Part shown: positions 15,542 through 30,787 of the stretch, piece by piece
Layout of the letters: each line of letters opens with the position of its first letter
How positions within the stretch are numbered: the first letter of the stretch is position 1
DNA from: a virus
DNA length: 64,000 nucleotides
Strand: one strand, 5' to 3'
Virus record (IMG/VR): IMGVR_UViG_3300046516_001816
Coordinates: 186,001 to 250,000 of that record
Notes under the pieces: generated by a model
Database searches by the model: none
Seen by the model: only the letters and a program-made list of their open reading frames with translations
What the model was told of the DNA's origin: nothing
Position numbers and translations under genes: made by a program

Positions 15542-15922
15542 ATGAACCAAGTCGTACACAGCCGGATCTACGGCACCGATCTGAAAGAGATCGTCCCGAA
15601 CAAAGAGCTTTTCAAGAGCGTGGGTATCTGGATGACGAAGATGCTCAAGCAACTCAACCGGAACGTGGCGTCGCTGCCGGGGGTGAACCCGGCTGACAGC
15701 AATATCAGCACGCACTGTCTGCCGATCGTGATGACCCACGAGGAGCAAATCCATCGCGGCTGGTGTCTGGATATCTCGGCGCAGGTGAATAACGGCCTGC
15801 GGGTGCAAGCGCTCTGTTTCCTGCGCGCTGGCGACGACGGCTACACGGCGGTCGAAATCATTGACCCGAACCTCGTGTCGGAGTGGAATTACGTCAACCA
15901 AACCGTCCCGGAACTGGCATGA
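15542..15922 (+). CDS. Hypothetical phage protein
   Basis: A 126-aa protein with an AAACCAGGA leader. It overlaps the next gene (ATGA). The C-terminal block T-A-V-E-I-I-D-P resembles a segment of the preceding gene. No function recognised. Confidence 0.6.
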   Translation: MNQVVHSRIYGTDLKEIVPNKELFKSVGIWMTKMLKQLNRNVASLPGVNPADSNISTHCLPIVMTHEEQIHRGWCLDISAQVNNGLRVQALCFLRAGDDGYTAVEIIDPNLVSEWNYVNQTVPELA

Positions 15923-16566
15923 ACCACGTCATCTGCCCCAACGAGAAATGCCGCTCCACTGTCTATATTGGCAGCGAGCTCTGGGACCAGATGACGCAAC
16001 CGGGCAGCCTGGCCGTGATCGGGTGTCCGTATTGCAGCTGGCGAATACCCGGCGCCCATTTACAGAACATCAAACACCGTCTGAATCATGGGTGGTGGAG
16101 TATCGGCAACGCGGGTCACGTCATTCTGCACAATGACGCAGGCGATGCCTATCCGGAGAAAGTGGTCCCCGATGATCCGTCGACGATCCTGGGACCCTTG
16201 CCCTTTCTGATGGTGCGGGCCAATCGCGTGGGTCCGAACAACGAGTTGCCACCGGCCGAATGGGTGCATATCCCCGTCGGTCAGTACGGCGACTGTCGCG
16301 ATGAAGTCCTGGGTGGCGTGGCGTACAAAGCCTGGTACAAGAAACGCATGCCGCTCGTGAAGCATGGTGAAAAGATTCAGCTGGAGTTAAGTCAGGACGA
16401 GATTGATGCGATTGTGTATGCCGCCAAAAAGATGTACGGCGACGAAGCCTACGCCTGTGTCTCGGAAATGGTGATGTACGACGGCTATGGTCAATTCGTG
16501 CACCGGGGTAATATCGACCCCCTCGCCCTCGGTGCCTTTAACGGTGTGACGATTGACGTCGCATAA
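15919..16566 (+). CDS. Zinc-ribbon-containing hypothetical protein
   Basis: A 215-aa protein. The start at 15919 is chosen because it forms an ATGA overlap and puts the Cys motif at the N-terminus; an upstream in-frame start is inside the previous gene. Residues ~6-39 carry C-P-N-E-K-C...C-P-Y-C, a zinc-ribbon-like pair of Cys motifs. The rest has no recognised domain. RNA or DNA binding is possible. Confidence 0.65.
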   Translation: MNHVICPNEKCRSTVYIGSELWDQMTQPGSLAVIGCPYCSWRIPGAHLQNIKHRLNHGWWSIGNAGHVILHNDAGDAYPEKVVPDDPSTILGPLPFLMVRANRVGPNNELPPAEWVHIPVGQYGDCRDEVLGGVAYKAWYKKRMPLVKHGEKIQLELSQDEIDAIVYAAKKMYGDEAYACVSEMVMYDGYGQFVHRGNIDPLALGAFNGVTIDVA

Positions 16567-16943: not shown

Positions 16944-17183
16944 ATGAAAGATATCGTAGAAGCACTGAAAGCGCTCACCGCTTCGATTGCAGCGGTCGAC
17001 AAAGAAACGCAAAAAACCAAACGGGCGATTTCCCCGGCTGAGGCGAAGGTCATTACCCAGATGCGTAAGGAGCTGCGCAGCCTGCGTAAGGACTTTATCA
17101 AAGTCTGTACCTTGCCGGCGACCCAGGTCGCGAAAATCTTCGGCATCTCCGAGTCTCGGGTCTATCAGATCCGCGGCGAGTAA
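16944..17183 (+). CDS. Small C-terminal HTH protein
   Basis: A 79-aa protein after AAACCAAGGAAG. The N-terminal 50 residues form a basic coiled-coil-like helix. Residues ~57-79 (A-T-Q-V-A-K-I-F-G-I-S-E-S-R-V-Y-Q-I-R) fit a helix-turn-helix recognition motif. It lies directly upstream of the TIGR-like array and could be a regulator of it, but this is positional inference only. Confidence 0.6.
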   Translation: MKDIVEALKALTASIAAVDKETQKTKRAISPAEAKVITQMRKELRSLRKDFIKVCTLPATQVAKIFGISESRVYQIRGE

Positions 17184-17191
17184 CACTGACT

Positions 17192-17228
17192 GACGGCATA
17201 AACGGGGAGAGCTTCGGCTCTCCCTTTT
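17192..17228. terminator. Bidirectional terminator with reversed ATGCCGTC motif
   Basis: GGGGAGAGC-TTCG-GCTCTCCC with TTTT on the plus side; on the minus strand the same stem is followed by TTTATGCCGTCA. The orientation of that tail implies it can also stop transcription coming leftward from the array region. Confidence 0.75.
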
Positions 17229-17251: not shown

Positions 17252-17272
17252 CGTATATTACTACTTTGAAGC
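17252..17272 (+). promoter_or_regulatory. Candidate early promoter (TATATTAC) for the array
   Basis: GTATATTACTACTTTGAAG, the best match in the window to the phiKZ-type early promoter TATATTAC, sits ~45 bp before the first repeat box and directly after a terminator. It would drive a long precursor RNA across the array and possibly into the Tas gene. Confidence 0.65.
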
Positions 17273-17299
17273 TGAGGCTTTGAATCATTTTTCATAACT

Positions 17300-19380
17300 C
17301 ACCCATCAGGAGCAAATGTATCACGAGATCCAGGCTTCCAATATATAAGAGTGTGGCAAATGAAAGCAGTCGCACACCGAACGGAAACGCACCCTGTTGT
17401 TTAGTCACCCAAACCAAACCAGTGTATCAAAGCGATTCATGCACCCAGCTCGCGCAGTGTATCAATGAACTTCAGGCATCCGGGTACGGAAGTGCGTCGA
17501 ATCCATCACGCTCCCATCGTGGATGAGCGCGTCGACAGGGAAAATCCACCCAATGCAAGCTGAGCGCATCAACGATGTAAACTCACCCGATTCAACGTAG
17601 TGAGATAGAGAGACCAACGCCCCCACGAATCGTTAGCGTGTCATAGACGTTGAGTCGCCCAATATGTAGCAGCGTACCATGTGATAATAGTCACCCTTAA
17701 AGGACAAGTGCGTCAATAGCAAAGTGTCCGCCAGTTGAAGTCAACGTATCAAGGACAACCGCCAGTCAACCAGCTGTGAAGAGTGAACTTTCAAGAAGAG
17801 GCGCCCAGAAGGGGTCAGTGTGACAGGGCAGATAAGTCACCCATCGTTTCGAACTGAGTCAAGAACATGTGAGCCTACCGGGTTAACATGCGTACCATGG
17901 GGCGAGCGTCACCCATTTAAGTTCAGTGTGTCATACGGCAAATGTAACCCAAATAGATTTCGTAGTGAAGCAATGGATAGAAGGCACCCAATGTCTACGA
18001 TTGTATCAAAAGACTAGCTCCACCCAAGGTCTTCTAGTGTATCAATCTGGTATTGCCGACCATAAGTGGGCCAGTGCGCCAAAAGACGAAAGTAGTCCAG
18101 CAGGAAGTAAGTGTAACACGAGAGATATGACGTCCATACTCAACAACTGTGTCACGCGTGTCAGTCGTCCAGACAGGTAAAGTGCATCACAGAAACTACT
18201 TCCTCCAGTACGAAGAAGTGGATCAGTCCGTGCGCAGTCACCCATAGAGCATGAGTGTTTCAGAAGGGTTCAATGCAACCGATGTAGTTGAGTGCATCAA
18301 GCCGCATAGCGACACCCAAAGATGATGAGTGTATCAAAAGACCTAATTTTTACCCATAGACTAGGTGTGTATCATTCCGAAGCAGTCACCCAGTGAACAG
18401 TAATGTATCAAGGTAGGACGATGTCGCCCAGCGATTCGAGTGTAGCACGGTAGATGTGTCATCCAGAACAGGTATTTGTATCAAATAGCATAGTCATCCA
18501 GAGTGGACCAGTGGATCAGAACCATTGATTCAACCGAACGACCCAGTGCAGCAAAGGAGTCTAGTCGCACAGTAGTCGCATTGCAGCAACATTGCACAGT
18601 CCCCCATATCGTCCGATTGTATCAAAACTTGTAATGCCTCCAGTAATACTTAGTGTAGCAATCTGCTCCAGTCACCCATTGTGATAGATTGTAGCAAATG
18701 AGGATAGCCACCCTATGTGAGCAATTATATCAGCAATCATAAACCCTCCATAGTTAGCTAGTGGATCAAGGTGTCTATGTCACCCAGATCGACCCAGTGT
18801 AGCAAAGAACGGGAGTCCACCGCAAAACCGATTTGAACCAAAGTTATTACGCGCCCAAAACATGGAAGTGGGTCATGGAGAAACATTTCACCCAGCCCCG
18901 TTGACCGTATCAGTCTGCAAACTTCACCCATTGTAACACAGTGTATCATTGTAGGGTAGTCACCCGGAATCCTAACTGAACCAGAGACAGGAAGCCGCCC
19001 GATTAATAACAGTGTATCAACCTGAACATGTCGCCCAGATTGTCTTAGTGTATCAAAGTACGCACTGCATCCATTGAAATTCAGTGTATCGCAGTTGTAG
19101 AGTCGACCATATCTGGAAAGTGTAGCAAGATGGATTAGCCTTCCAATCCAGGAATGGAATCAAGTGCAACAAGCCACCCGTCGTAAGCTAGTGTATCAAT
19201 CACGCAAATCCACCCAACCAGTATTAGTGTATCAGTGCATTGAATTCCCCCATTGGAGAGAAGTGTATTAAGGTCCGAAAGTCCAGCAAATCGTAATAGT
19301 GCATCAGGGTTTTACAGTCACCCATCGTGCTCATGTGTATCAATCATCATCAGGCACCCAGAGTAGTTCAGTGTCAACAA
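17300..19380 (+). repeat. TIGR-like array, ~58 units of ~36 bp
   Basis: Two conserved boxes alternate throughout. Box A is AGTCACCCA (variants TCGCCCA, TCATCCA, TCCAGCA); box B is AGTGTATCAA (variants AGTGTAGCAA, AGTGCATCAA). Each box is followed by ~8-9 variable bases, so one unit holds two spacers. I placed 58 A-boxes from 17300 to 19355, mean pitch 36.05 bp, most intervals 35-36 with occasional 34 or 38. No open reading frame spans the block. This matches TIGR arrays (tandem interspaced guide RNA), which are processed into 36-nt guides with spacers A and B. It is not CRISPR: repeats are ~9 bp and spacers ~9 bp. Box sequences decay in places (e.g. unit near 17371). Confidence 0.85.
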
Positions 19381-19407
19381 ACTAAACCAAACCAAGGAAA
19401 CTGTATC

Positions 19408-20652
19408 ATGACGACGCAACTCACTCCCGCATATAACCCCAACCTGGCTGTGATCCGCACGATGGTGCGCTCGGCCTACGATATGCAGGATCTGCGCATT
19501 CAGATGGGCAACCGTGTGACGGCTAGCTTCAAGGCCAAGCTCGGATTGCGTCAAGACGGCATGAGCGAGAAAGAGCTCGAGAAGCAAGAGAAGGGCATCC
19601 TCGATCAGCTGCGCGTGTCCTATCGTCGTATCACCGACGGCGTCGTGGCCGAACACGGCGAAGACATCAAAGCCGGCAAGCTCCCCACGGAACGCAAGTT
19701 CCAGGGCGACCAGTTGATTAGCCACTACAGCGAACTGCTGCTGGTGGATAACTACATGGCGACGCTCGCCAACGAACAACATCACTTCAAGGATATGGAA
19801 AAGATCCTGAAGAAGATCCCCATCTACACGGAATTCCTTACCGGTATCCGCGGCGTCGGTCCTGCCATGGCCGGCATCATCATTTCCGAAATCGACATTC
19901 ATAAAGCCGAATACCCGTCAAGCCTGTGGAAGCTCGCAGGGCTGGACGTGGTGTATATCGGGAAGTACACCGACGGCGAAGGCAAAGAGAAGACAATCCG
20001 CGGCTGGGACGTCGACTCGTGGTTCAATGACCCGGCCAACGAAGGCAAACAGTATCTGGCTGAAGGCAAGTACCCGGTGACCTACGAGGCCGTCGGCCGC
20101 TCGCGCAAGGACTTCTGTTTGGTGAAGAAGGAGTACATCAATAAAGAAGGGGAAGCCGCGCAACGTGACTCGATTACGTTCAACCCGTTTCTGAAGACGA
20201 AACTGGTGGGCGTGTTGGGCACGTCGTTTCTGCGGGCCGGCATTGCCAATGTCGATGGCAAGAAGTGCGGCGGGGCATCGCGGTTGGAACTCGCGAAGGA
20301 AGAAGGGTTCAATCCGAAGGACTACCCGGAGATGGAAGAGGACCAGGCCGTGATCGTCTATCTGCGTGCGAAGGGTCATGACGTTGTGGTGGAGCCCAGC
20401 AAGTACGCCGTGATGTATGCGGATTACAAGAACCGCCTGAACAACAACCCGAAGCACCGGGACAAAACCGCGCTGCACAAACACAACATGGCCATGCGCT
20501 TTATGGTCAAGCGTTTCTTGGTGGATCTGTACAACGCATGGCGGCGTCTGGAAGGCCTGGTGGTCGCCCCCGAGTACTCGGAAGGTGTGCTGGGTAAGGT
20601 GCACGGTCAAGCGAAGGAAGCCGGCTGGCAGCATCCGCGCTTCTCGCTGTAA
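19408..20652 (+). CDS. tasA: Tas protein (TasA-like, Nop/IS110 Transposase_20-related, no nuclease)
   Basis: A 414-aa protein starting at 19408 after AAACCAAGGAAAC. Residues ~1-130 are charged, helical and coiled-coil-like. Residues ~140-185 (I-P-I-Y-T-E-F-L-T-G-I-R-G-V-G-P-A-M-A-G-I-I-I-S-E...L-W-K-L-A-G-L, broken here by helix boundaries) match the helix-hairpin-helix core of the IS110 Transposase_20 domain, which is structurally related to the Nop domain of box C/D snoRNPs. A C-terminal helix contains H-K-H-N-M-A-M-R-F. No RuvC DEDD or HNH motif is seen, so it is a nuclease-less TasA rather than TasR/TasH or an active transposase. The array lies immediately upstream on the same strand with no terminator between. 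Expected role: binding array-derived guides and DNA. Confidence 0.75.
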   Translation: MTTQLTPAYNPNLAVIRTMVRSAYDMQDLRIQMGNRVTASFKAKLGLRQDGMSEKELEKQEKGILDQLRVSYRRITDGVVAEHGEDIKAGKLPTERKFQGDQLISHYSELLLVDNYMATLANEQHHFKDMEKILKKIPIYTEFLTGIRGVGPAMAGIIISEIDIHKAEYPSSLWKLAGLDVVYIGKYTDGEGKEKTIRGWDVDSWFNDPANEGKQYLAEGKYPVTYEAVGRSRKDFCLVKKEYINKEGEAAQRDSITFNPFLKTKLVGVLGTSFLRAGIANVDGKKCGGASRLELAKEEGFNPKDYPEMEEDQAVIVYLRAKGHDVVVEPSKYAVMYADYKNRLNNNPKHRDKTALHKHNMAMRFMVKRFLVDLYNAWRRLEGLVVAPEYSEGVLGKVHGQAKEAGWQHPRFSL

Positions 20653-20658
20653 GCGAAT

Positions 20659-20680
20659 GGGGAGCTTCGGCTCCCCTTAA
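20659..20680 (+). terminator. Terminator after the Tas gene
   Basis: GGGGAGC-TTCG-GCTCCCC followed by TTAA; a compact stem ending the array-tas unit. Confidence 0.75.
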
Positions 20681-21801: not shown

Positions 21802-22623
21802 TTACAGGTCAGAAAGAATCACCCAGAAGTCATCGGCGAGTTCCGGATTCAGCATGTACTGATAGGGCAGCCAGAAGCAGCCCGGGTTCGCGGGATCGCC
21901 CCACTGGTCGCCCCACGAATTCCGCACGAGGAAGCATTGCTTCGCATTGTCGTAACCGACGACGAGTACCGCGTGACCGCCCAGACAGTTTTCATACTGC
22001 GTGGGCATCGGCACGAAACCCGTGCGCGCGACTTCATCCGATTCGAAGGCATCGAAAATCTGGATGCCGACGATGATCGGACGATTGAACACCGCGAGCA
22101 CGTGTTGGAAAGCTTCCAGCGTTTGCGGCACCGCCTGGTACTGCAACGCCTTGTGGTTCAGCCCTTCGGCGTAGGATTCGACCGTAGGCTTGACCTTGAA
22201 GTGTTCCGTGTCGTCGCTGTACGGCCACGTGCTCTCCAACGGTGCACCGAACTTTGCGGCGACTTTGACGACGTCACGGATTTCACCGCCTGCGTCTTGA
22301 TCGACGTCACCTTCGAGGTCACGTTCGTTGTAGTAGAGGAACAGGCGCGACAGTGCTTGCGCGACGTTCGTACCCGTCTGAATGTTTTCTTCGTATTCCA
22401 GTGCACCGGCTGTGGCGTTCGCCGTGCACGAACCGAGCTGTCCCTGGTCTTTCACCGGCGAGCAATGCGCCGTGAGGTTCACCGAAGCCGGGATGGCTGC
22501 CGCGCCGAAGGTCAGATGGCCGTGGTACACATGGTCACGACTGTCGGCGGTTTTCTTTTTACGCTTATAAACGCGCGTGACCACCTTCTTTTGGGGTTCG
22601 GCGTGGTGTGGGGTATGCTGCAT
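21802..22623 (-). CDS. Papain-like (C1A) cysteine protease
   Basis: A 273-aa minus-strand protein. The catalytic motifs of papain-family peptidases are all visible: Q-G-Q-L-G-S-C-T-A-N (active Cys, residue ~71), G-G-H-A-V-L-V-V-G-Y (active His, ~218) and R-N-S-W-G-D-Q-W-G (active Asn, ~237). The first ~45 residues are basic with no Sec signal, and there is no long propeptide, so it would act in the cytoplasm or be released at lysis. It is the only minus-strand gene among plus-strand neighbours between 1 and 52 kb and has its own terminator, so it behaves like a moron. Targets are unknown; host protein degradation or polyprotein processing are possibilities. Confidence 0.88.
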   Translation of the reverse strand: MQHTPHHAEPQKKVVTRVYKRKKKTADSRDHVYHGHLTFGAAAIPASVNLTAHCSPVKDQGQLGSCTANATAGALEYEENIQTGTNVAQALSRLFLYYNERDLEGDVDQDAGGEIRDVVKVAAKFGAPLESTWPYSDDTEHFKVKPTVESYAEGLNHKALQYQAVPQTLEAFQHVLAVFNRPIIVGIQIFDAFESDEVARTGFVPMPTQYENCLGGHAVLVVGYDNAKQCFLVRNSWGDQWGDPANPGCFWLPYQYMLNPELADDFWVILSDL

Positions 22624-29727: not shown

Positions 29728-29811
29728 GGAAGGGTGCCCGAGTGGTTAAAGGGGGCGGACTGTAAATCCGTTGCTTCGGCTTCGTAGGTTCAAATCCTAC
29801 CTCTTCCACCA
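29728..29811 (+). tRNA. tRNA-Tyr (GTA)
   Basis: Acceptor GGAAGGG pairs with CTCTTCC; anticodon loop CTGTAAA gives GTA; a long variable arm (TTGCTTCGGCTTC) marks a class II tRNA; T-arm GTAGG-TTCAAAT-CCTAC; encoded CCA at 29809-29811. Confidence 0.93.
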
Positions 29812-29827
29812 TTTTCGTAGTAGCTGT

Positions 29828-29854
29828 TCCCTAGTAGCTCAGTTGGTAAAACTC
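29828..29854 (+). pseudogene. 5' half of a broken tRNA-Asn
   Basis: TCCCTAG acceptor strand, TA, then a D-arm-like TAGCTCAGTTGGTA that stops at the HNH start codon. The acceptor strand is complementary to CTGGGGA in the 3' fragment at 30325, indicating that the two fragments were once one tRNA. Confidence 0.7.
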
Positions 29855-30208
29855 ATGACCGAAAAGATCTGCAAGATTCACGGCGCCACCAACTTCTTCC
29901 CGCGCGCTGACGGCGGTAGTCGCTGTGGTCAGTGTTCGGCAGATGCGGTTAAGAATCGTCGTCGAAAGATAAAGCTACTCGCCATCGAGTATAAAGGCGG
30001 CGCATGTGAGAACTGTGGTAATTCGTTTCATCCCGCAGTGTTTGAGTTTCACCACAAGGACCCTAGTCAAAAAGACTTTGCTGTTGGGGCCGGAGGTAAT
30101 GCTAGAGCATGGGAGCTTGTGAAAACAGAGCTGGATAAGTGTTCCATGCTTTGCGCGAATTGTCACCGTATCGAGCATTCAAAGTTGTTTGATGTAGATC
30201 CACGATAG
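29855..30208 (+). CDS. HNH homing endonuclease
   Basis: A 117-aa protein from ATG 29855. It has paired C-x2-C sites (C-G-Q-C; C-E-N-C) and the HNH core: F-E-F-H-H-K-D-P (H-H), then C-A-N-C-H-R-I-E-H. This fits small HNH endonucleases of free-standing homing type, which nick or cut DNA at their insertion site. The gene lies between two halves of a tRNA-Asn, and its stop codon TAG falls inside the first bases of an intact tRNA-Asn. No RBS is visible upstream of the ATG. Confidence 0.85.
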   Translation: MTEKICKIHGATNFFPRADGGSRCGQCSADAVKNRRRKIKLLAIEYKGGACENCGNSFHPAVFEFHHKDPSQKDFAVGAGGNARAWELVKTELDKCSMLCANCHRIEHSKLFDVDPR

Positions 30209-30275
30209 CTCAGTTGGTAGTAGCGTCGGACTGTTAATCCGAAGGTCCCTGGTTCGAGCCCAGGTCGTGGAGCCA
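30199..30275 (+). tRNA. tRNA-Asn (GTT)
   Basis: Acceptor TCCACGA pairs with TCGTGGA; anticodon loop CTGTTAA gives GTT; T-arm CCTGG-TTCGAGC-CCAGG; encoded CCA. Its first 10 bp overlap the 3' end of the HNH gene. Confidence 0.92.
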
Positions 30276-30285
30276 AACATGTAGT

Positions 30286-30335
30286 ACCCTAGGTTAATCC
30301 GTTGGTCGCTGGTTCAAGTCCAGCCTGGGGAGCCA
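30286..30335 (+). pseudogene. 3' half of a broken tRNA-Asn
   Basis: ACCCTAG is joined directly to GTTAATCCG (anticodon GTT onward), then T-arm GCTGG-TTCAAGT-CCAGC, acceptor CTGGGGA and GCCA. The D-arm and 5' anticodon stem are missing. Either it is the displaced 3' half of the fragment at 29828 or an internally deleted second copy. Confidence 0.7.
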
Positions 30336-30350
30336 TTGATTTTGTAGTAC

Positions 30351-30426
30351 GCCCGTTTAGCTCAGCTGGTAGAGCAGCTCATTCGTAATGAGAAGGTCGG
30401 CGATTCGAATTCGTCATCGGGCACCA
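30351..30426 (+). tRNA. tRNA-Thr (CGT)
   Basis: D-arm TAGCTCAGCTGGTAGAGC, anticodon loop TTCGTAA (CGT), T-loop TTCGAAT, 3' ACCA encoded. Acceptor GCCCG pairs with CGGGC; one mismatch lies lower in the acceptor stem. Confidence 0.88.
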
Positions 30427-30479
30427 GTTGATTCAGGAGTGATGCACTCAGTCCTGAATTTACTTTATAAGGCAGCATC

Positions 30480-30701
30480 ATGTTCGTATTAACCGCTAAG
30501 GTGTGGCGTAACGGCTCACTGTGTCGTGAGTATTACCAGCCGGAAGAAACCGGCTTTGTGCCCGGTGTCGTTTTTGGTCTGGATGGTGCGAAGCGCGCCA
30601 AGCAATACCAGACGGAAGAGGAAGCTATCGCTGATATCCCGGTGTTCAGACGGGCTGTTGGGTATCATGATCAACAGGGTGTCGACGTCGTTGCGGTGTA
30701 A
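30480..30701 (+). CDS. Small hypothetical protein within the tRNA cluster
   Basis: A 73-aa protein, ATG 30480 with TAAGGC upstream. Strand-rich N-terminus, C-terminal G-V-D-V-V-A-V. It sits only 5 bp before tRNA-Gln. Function unknown. Confidence 0.55.
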   Translation: MFVLTAKVWRNGSLCREYYQPEETGFVPGVVFGLDGAKRAKQYQTEEEAIADIPVFRRAVGYHDQQGVDVVAV

Positions 30702-30706
30702 GGTTT

Positions 30707-30780
30707 AGGGGAGTCGCCAAGTTGGTTAAGGCATCGGATTTTGATTCCGACATGCGTAGGTTCGAATCCTACTTCCCCTG
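30707..30780 (+). tRNA. tRNA-Gln (TTG)
   Basis: Acceptor AGGGGAG pairs with TTCCCCT; D-arm GCCAAGTTGGTTAAGGC; anticodon loop TTTTGAT gives TTG; T-arm GTAGG-TTCGAAT-CCTAC. CCA is not encoded. Confidence 0.88.
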
Positions 30781-30787
30781 TAAGGAA

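What the first reader, a model, noticed from the sequence alone, without database searches (positions are those of the whole stretch)
17252..20652. TIGR-Tas-like RNA-guided system in a jumbo phage
A ~2.1-kb array of about 58 units with mean pitch 36.05 bp (58 box-A positions counted by eye between 17300 and 19355) carries two short conserved boxes per unit, each followed by ~8-9 variable bases. Directly downstream, on the same strand, is a protein with an IS110 Transposase_20/Nop-like domain and no nuclease. TIGR-Tas systems (reported 2025) combine exactly these: arrays processed into 36-nt guides with two spacers, and a Nop-domain Tas protein. A TATATTAC-type promoter precedes the array. What the ~116 spacers target is unknown and could reveal competing phages, host genes or self-regulation.
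Basis: partly seen in the sequence, partly recalled or inferred. Interest (0 to 1): 0.96.

Follow-up and report, generated by a model that had tools for sequence, protein, structure and literature searches.

The report
RNA-guided TIGR-TasA system, giant phage
A giant bacterial virus that builds its own 'nucleus' carries an unusually long 58-unit bank of paired guide sequences next to a guide-RNA-binding protein, a TIGR-Tas system without scissors, and comparison with sister viruses shows its guides are kept nearly unchanged by selection although their targets remain unknown.

Summary
At 17279-19374 there are 58 units of 36 nt: edge repeat AGTGTATCA, 9-nt spacer A, loop repeat AGTCACCCA, 9-nt spacer B, then a truncated edge (score 1014; best of 40 shuffles 68). 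Next to it, 19408-20652 encodes a 414-aa Tas protein. It matches NCBI's TIGR_Tas model (E=1.8e-26, just under cut-off; a 78%-identical sister passes), TasR and TasH by sequence, and TasH/TasR as the ten best solved structures by fold. No nuclease domain was found, so it is TasA-type. The published Salicola-phage TasH array, read with the same method, has the repeats of several relatives. Nearly all relatives with flanking sequence carry such an array.

Additions: the phage is phiKZ-like and nucleus-forming (ChmA, PhuZ, multisubunit RNA polymerases). The array is about four times the usual length, with degenerate repeats. Among sister phages, shared spacers differ at 4-6% of sites, boxes at 9-12%, four-fold-degenerate tas sites at 26-38%; other units are replaced whole, more often near tas. 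No target was found in own genome, sister phages, rRNA or public genomes. Most likely a guide-programmed DNA binder (roadblock) aimed at host or rival DNA; that step is inferred. Known kind, notable member.

The parts
17204..17225 (+). intrinsic-terminator-like hairpin that probably closes the upstream transcription unit
   Evidence: 9-pair stem followed by T-rich tail; not tested
17253..17260 (+). TATATTAC, candidate phiKZ-type promoter core
   Evidence: sequence; equals the phiKZ promoter core in PMC7058600; same string 10:1 strand-biased in sister phage G002 but not upstream of its array; function unproven
17279..17287 (+). first edge repeat, TTTGAATCA; only its 3' half fits the consensus (5'-truncated edge, as TIGR arrays begin)
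17279..19369 (+). TIGR array: 58 units of edge AGTGTATCA - spacer A (about 9) - loop AGTCACCCA - spacer B (about 9)
   Evidence: 116 alternating boxes, score 1014 against at most 68 in shuffles
18652..18687 (+). unit 39 (index 38): AGTGTAGCA-ATCTGCTCC-AGTCACCCA-TTGTGATAG; both spacers identical in three sister phages whose tas gene is 24-25% diverged
   Evidence: supports the unit order edge-A-loop-B
19370..19374 (+). terminal 3'-truncated edge repeat, AGTGT
   Evidence: sequence; same arrangement in sister L018
19408..20652 (+). tasA: 414-aa Nop-domain Tas protein, no nuclease domain found, long helices (coiled-coil region) about residues 11-134, Transposase_20-like core 138-181; extra segments 187-229 and 279-329
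20659..20676 (+). hairpin GGGGAGC-TTCG-GCTCCCC just after tasA
   Evidence: by inspection of the sequence; not listed as a terminator by the scan

Best explanation
A TIGR-Tas system of the TasA (nuclease-less) type in a phiKZ-like, nucleus-forming jumbo phage. The array and tasA lie on one strand, probably in one transcript. The array RNA would be cut inside the edge repeats into about 58 tigRNAs of 36 nt, and a TasA dimer would hold one of them. Spacer A pairs with one DNA strand and spacer B with the adjacent stretch of the other, so the complex opens and bends about 18 bp of target DNA. Lacking a nuclease, it most likely acts by sitting on the target and blocking transcription or replication. 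The targets are most likely outside the phage: host genes or rival mobile elements. Shown here: array architecture, membership of the Tas family, absence of a detected nuclease, conservation of spacers beyond the neutral expectation, replacement of whole units, and no detectable target in own or sister genomes. Inferred from the studied relatives: transcription, processing, dimerisation, dual-strand targeting. Inferred without direct test: roadblock action and external targets.
For: Array. Protein family; fold. Positive control: the array of Salicola phage CGphi29, whose TasH and tigRNAs were studied in PMC12045711, shows with the same method a 36-nt unit with edge AGCGAGYCA and loop AGACAACCA, the consensus of relatives such as L024 and L292. 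Association: about 80 related loci have the array beside tas; apart from L031 and L035 the loci without one are cut off at or near tas. Function: among sisters G002-G004, shared units have spacer divergence of 4-6%, box divergence 9-12% and 26-38% at four-fold-degenerate tas sites; 9-13 units per pair have no spacer change where under 0.2 are expected neutrally. External targets: no exact paired match in own genomes (26 arrays) or across genomes. Unit 39 is conserved to deeper divergence.
Against: No RNA data. The window protein is just under the NCBIfam cut-off (93.4 of 100 bits) and under the Pfam cut-off. The array is far longer than the usual 5-15 units, and its repeats are degenerate with variable spacer lengths. 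No terminator follows the array. No target was found, and exact searches with the best-conserved unit give only chance-like hits. A weak excess of near matches in own genomes in the expected geometry (26 seen against 16.8 expected at up to 2 mismatches; other geometries at expectation) leaves self-targeting open.
Confidence: 0.75

Rival explanations
1. Same TIGR-TasA system, but the guides mainly regulate the phage's own genome (timing of its genes, or packaging or replication).
For: Weak excess of paired near matches in own genomes only in the predicted geometry: 3 against 0.68 expected at up to 1 mismatch, 26 against 16.8 at up to 2. Leads: sister unit index 12 at G002:50140 (17/18), unit 44 at G002:111634 and the homologous site in G003, window unit index 4 at G000:181654 (16/17). 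A nuclease-less effector could safely bind its own genome.
Against: No exact self match for any unit; permutation tests are not significant for the window phage (p 0.09-0.25) and depend on one sister array; no preferred offset within 45 bp.
Confidence: 0.15
2. The repeats are DNA sites of a DNA-binding protein (iteron- or centromere-like, perhaps for partition or packaging), and the IS110-like gene is unrelated or the binder.
For: Short degenerate repeats at regular pitch; Faure et al. note TasA operons with ParB-like genes.
Against: In binding-site arrays the boxes should be the conserved part; in sisters the spacers change less than the boxes. The array is tied to a Tas-family gene in nearly all intact loci, and no ParB-like neighbour was recognised beside tas in this window.
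Confidence: 0.04
3. An IS110 transposase with a bridge RNA next to an unrelated repeat region.
For: Weak Transposase_20 match (E 0.04); PHROG 4285 is labelled transposase.
Against: TIGR_Tas 93 bits against IS110 20 bits; IS621 ranks only 11th by fold, behind ten Tas chains; no N-terminal nuclease or transposase domain found.
Confidence: 0.01
4. A decaying, no longer functional TIGR locus.
For: Degenerate edge and loop repeats and irregular spacer lengths.
Against: Intact 414-aa gene; sisters' tas proteins differ by 2-4% although 26-38% of four-fold sites differ, so the gene is under selection; spacers are conserved too.
Confidence: 0.05

Closest known systems
TIGR-TasH of Salicola phage CGphi29 (SpTIGR; PMC12045711; PDB 9vzx, 9w02-9w04, 21kl)
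   Same: 36-nt unit; repeat consensus shared with relatives of the window system; sequence and fold similarity of the Nop part
   Different: TasH carries an HNH nuclease, none detected here; SpTIGR spacers are 8 nt; window repeats are AGTGTATCA/AGTCACCCA and the array has 58 units
TIGR-TasA such as Flavonifractor plautii FpTIGR (PMC12045711)
   Same: Nop-domain effector without nuclease, dual-repeat array, 9-nt spacers, 36-nt unit
   Different: window array about four times the usual 5-15 units, degenerate repeats, two extra protein segments, nucleus-forming jumbo phage; FpTasA sequence was not at hand for direct comparison
TIGR-TasR (PDB 9mty)
   Same: Nop fold, best profile match by sequence (2.5e-22), dual-guide array logic
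   Different: TasR has a RuvC nuclease; its repeats run UG...CCA
IS110/IS621 bridge-RNA recombinases
   Same: shared RNA-binding fold (8wt6, E 0.2)
   Different: no transposase domain, array of guides instead of one bridge RNA
CRISPR arrays
   Same: bank of variable guides between repeats
   Different: two short repeats per unit, no adaptation genes recognised, guides conserved for long periods

Membership tests
TIGR-Tas (TasA type) | array of two alternating 8-12 nt repeats separated by about 9-nt spacers, unit about 36 nt | tested here: met
[quoted passage not shown]
   TTTGAATCA at 17279 and AGTGT at 19370; same pattern in L018
TIGR-Tas (TasA type) | array adjacent to the tas gene, also in relatives | tested here: met
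TIGR-Tas (TasA type) | Nop-domain Tas protein by profile | tested here: met
   NF052498 E=1.8e-26, 93.4 bits, slightly under curated cut-off 100; sister L019 100.8 and L024 129.9 pass; TasR 2.5e-22 and TasH 7.8e-15 by profile
TIGR-Tas (TasA type) | Tas fold | tested here: met
   model pLDDT 80.5; ten best PDB matches are TasH/TasR, E 1e-6 to 1e-4; TM by query only 0.32-0.41, probably because of extra segments and domain placement
TIGR-Tas (TasA type) | no HNH or RuvC nuclease domain (TasA, not TasH/TasR) | tested here: met
   no nuclease match in Pfam, PHROGs, NCBIfam; N-terminal part is predicted long helices
TIGR-Tas (TasA type) | box C (CCA) / box D (UG) motifs at repeat ends | tested here: inconclusive
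   both repeats end in (C/T)CA; edge has TG at positions 3-4, loop has TC
TIGR-Tas (TasA type) | array processed into 36-nt tigRNAs bound by Tas | not testable with these tools
   needs RNA sequencing
TIGR-Tas (TasA type) | two spacers pair with opposite strands of adjacent target DNA | tested here: inconclusive
   no target found; weak excess of near matches in own genomes only in this geometry
IS110 transposase | IS110 equivalog profile above cut-off | tested here: not met
   19.8 bits, cut-off 140
nucleus-forming phiKZ-like phages | ChmA shell protein, PhuZ tubulin and multisubunit RNA polymerases encoded | tested here: met
   tblastn of phiKZ proteins to G000: ChmA 8e-26, PhuZ 2e-26, RNAP subunits 3e-59 to 1e-104; also in sisters

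The most novel reading that the evidence does not exclude
Nucleus-forming jumbo phages keep a long-lived, nuclease-free RNA-guided arsenal: dozens of paired guides against external targets (host genes or rival phages) are held constant by selection and renewed by replacing whole units, mostly at the tas-proximal end, without any adaptation genes. TasA then silences those targets by binding and bending DNA.
Probability: 0.35. Interest if true: 0.88.

Novelty: new member of a known kind. Interest (0 to 1): 0.62.

Why it matters
What TIGR guides target and how their arrays arise and change are named as open questions in the discovery paper. This system gives a handle: a 58-unit array plus colinear arrays in three sister phages about 90% identical, in which guides appear to be under selection and unit replacement can be followed. 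It places TIGR-TasA in nucleus-forming jumbo phages, a group known for shielding its DNA from DNA-cutting immunity; neither the TIGR paper's main text nor a 2026 review of jumbo phages mentions it there. It also suggests that phage proteins annotated as IS116/IS110/IS902 'transposases' may in part be Tas proteins.

Tried and rejected
Self-targets: all 58 pairs, both geometries, gaps 0-2 bp, against own genome and against sister genomes with shuffled pairings: no exact match; weak excess only. Other offsets up to 45 bp: no peak. Cross-targeting among 24 contigs: at chance; later search of all 4 Mb at hand: the extra hits come from loci fetched with those same patterns. E. coli rRNA as target: no enrichment. 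The best-conserved unit as an exact pattern: 3 viral contigs and 18 scattered taxa in 257 Gb, where about 22 are expected by chance by my arithmetic (2 x 257e9 x 3 / 4^18). Idea that differences between related guides are synonymous changes in coding targets (striking for L041 units 30/39/44, read as FLQLIT): p 0.0075 on pairs up to 4 differences but 0.20 up to 3, and no cross-junction phase in the larger set; kept as a lead only. Search for an L041 target gave families of unrelated phages and, by inspection, no exact match to one of the three guides. First structure model with two sequences was poor and was not used. Repeat decay along the array: no significant trend in the window array.

Full report
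Observation. The region was read directly and fitted with a model of two alternating 9-nt boxes separated by variable gaps. The fit converges on AGTGTATCA (edge) and AGTCACCCA (loop), 58 of each, 17279-19360, with 9-nt spacers in 88 of 115 intervals. The score is 1014 against at most 68 in 40 dinucleotide-preserving shuffles, and nothing else in the window resembles it. The first edge fits only in its 3' half and the array ends in AGTGT, a 3'-truncated edge, as described for TIGR arrays (PMC12045711).

Protein. The ORF 19408-20652 (414 aa) has only a sub-threshold Pfam match to Transposase_20. It matches NCBIfam TIGR_Tas_endo at 1.8e-26 with 93.4 bits (cut-off 100); the sister protein L019 scores 100.8 and the relative L024 129.9, while the IS110 model gives 19.8 of 140. 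A profile of 30 relatives retrieves only TasR (9mty, 2.5e-22) and TasH (21kl and others, 7.8e-15) from the PDB by sequence. An AlphaFold2 model (pLDDT 80.5) has TasH and TasR as its ten best fold matches, then IS621. No nuclease domain was found in Pfam, PHROGs or NCBIfam, so the effector is TasA-type. Compared with relatives of under 300 aa it has two extra segments, 187-229 and 279-329, present in all sisters and in L002.

Relatives and positive control. Viral-contig scans give 36 and then 80 loci, with 159 relatives counted in the last scan. Apart from L031 and L035, loci without an array are cut off at or near the tas gene; arrays lie upstream or downstream of tas with 36-nt pitch. The same reading of Salicola phage CGphi29, whose TasH system was characterised experimentally, shows units of edge AGCGAGYCA and loop AGACAACCA, the same consensus as L024 and L292. 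No relative was found in the scan of GTDB contigs or, for the window protein, in annotated phages.

The phage. The record is 284,983 bp. It encodes homologues of phiKZ ChmA (8e-26), PhuZ (2e-26), DNA polymerase and several RNA polymerase subunits, as do the sisters G001-G004 and the tas-bearing contig G006. The nearest annotated DNA polymerase is from Burkholderia phage FLC9, 54% identical. It therefore belongs to the nucleus-forming phiKZ-like group. A papain-like peptidase gene (21802-22623, minus strand; named by reading) lies near tas in all four sisters, so the locus looks inherited, not a recent insertion. TATATTAC at 17253 equals the phiKZ promoter core and is strand-biased in sisters but not upstream of their arrays.

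Evolution of the guides. Sisters G002-G004 are 89-92% identical over 90-94% of their length. Their arrays are colinear with insertions and deletions of whole units. In shared units spacers differ at 4-6% of sites, boxes at 9-12%, and four-fold-degenerate sites of tas at 26-38%. Units were aligned by spacer similarity, which biases spacer divergence down. But the number of spacer changes per unit peaks at zero and falls off, rather than rising to the cut-off, and 9-13 units per pair have no change where under 0.2 would be expected without selection. Units not shared lie closer to tas (pooled p 1.4e-5; the three comparisons are not independent, and other clades give mixed patterns). The window array, whose tas is 24-25% diverged from these sisters, still shares unit 39 exactly and two others in part, in the same order. 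I infer that guides are functional, have stable targets, and are renewed by unit replacement. This greater constraint on spacers than on boxes was seen in this clade; in some others the boxes are invariant.

Targets. Paired spacers, in the geometry implied by the published 8-nt 3' overhangs (B followed by the reverse complement of A, derived by me), have no exact match in own genome or sisters. Near matches in own genomes are slightly in excess in this geometry only: 26 against 16.8 expected with up to two mismatches, 3 against 0.68 with up to one; two other geometries are at expectation. I treat this as a lead. Cross-genome, rRNA and database searches are at chance.

Mechanism. By analogy with TasA, TasR and TasH (PMC12045711) the array should yield 36-nt tigRNAs, and a TasA dimer should open about 18 bp with each spacer on one strand. 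Without a nuclease, blocking and bending of DNA is the simplest action. External targets are favoured because the phage's own genome lacks good matches. Processing, binding and roadblock are inferred, not shown.

Verdict. Membership in TIGR-Tas, TasA type, is secure (about 0.97 in my judgement). It is a new member of a known kind, notable for array length, degenerate repeats, extra protein segments, a nucleus-forming phage as its carrier, and sister arrays that make guide evolution measurable.

Noticed in passing
G000-G004 and G006 (window is G000:186001-250000): Homologues of phiKZ ChmA, PhuZ and multisubunit RNA polymerases: these tas-bearing phages are of the nucleus-forming type.
   Followed up: yes
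L041, array units indexed 25, 30, 39, 44; L040 units 11/13 and 14/20/22: Families of near-identical guides within one array whose differences often fall three bases apart, as if one guide were kept in several versions against variants of a coding target. Statistically only suggestive.
   Followed up: partly
window 21802-22623 (-): Papain-like cysteine peptidase gene (by reading) that lies near tas in all four sister jumbo phages, 50-64% identical.
   Followed up: partly
window 16944-17183 (+): 79-aa helix-turn-helix protein just before the array; weak sigma-70 region 4 and HTH matches; not found in the sisters.
   Followed up: partly
window 19400-19408: An edge-like box, ACTGTATCA (12.0 bits), overlaps the A of the tasA start codon; sisters show at most a partial version. 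Could be chance or autoregulation.
   Followed up: no
PHROG 4285; BFVD A0A6J5RE94: The protein family is labelled transposase or IS116/IS110/IS902 in phage databases; at least these members look like Tas proteins.
   Followed up: partly
G002, 10 sites on + strand: TATATTAC is strongly strand-biased (10:1), often with a shared upstream context (TTCAAA ... CTATATTAC), a likely phage promoter.
   Followed up: partly
L036, array 15570-16379; L031, L035: In L036 the array lies about 7 kb from tas; L031 and L035 have no recognisable array although flanks are present.
   Followed up: no
window 29728-30781: Four tRNA genes (Tyr, Asn, Thr, Gln).
   Followed up: no
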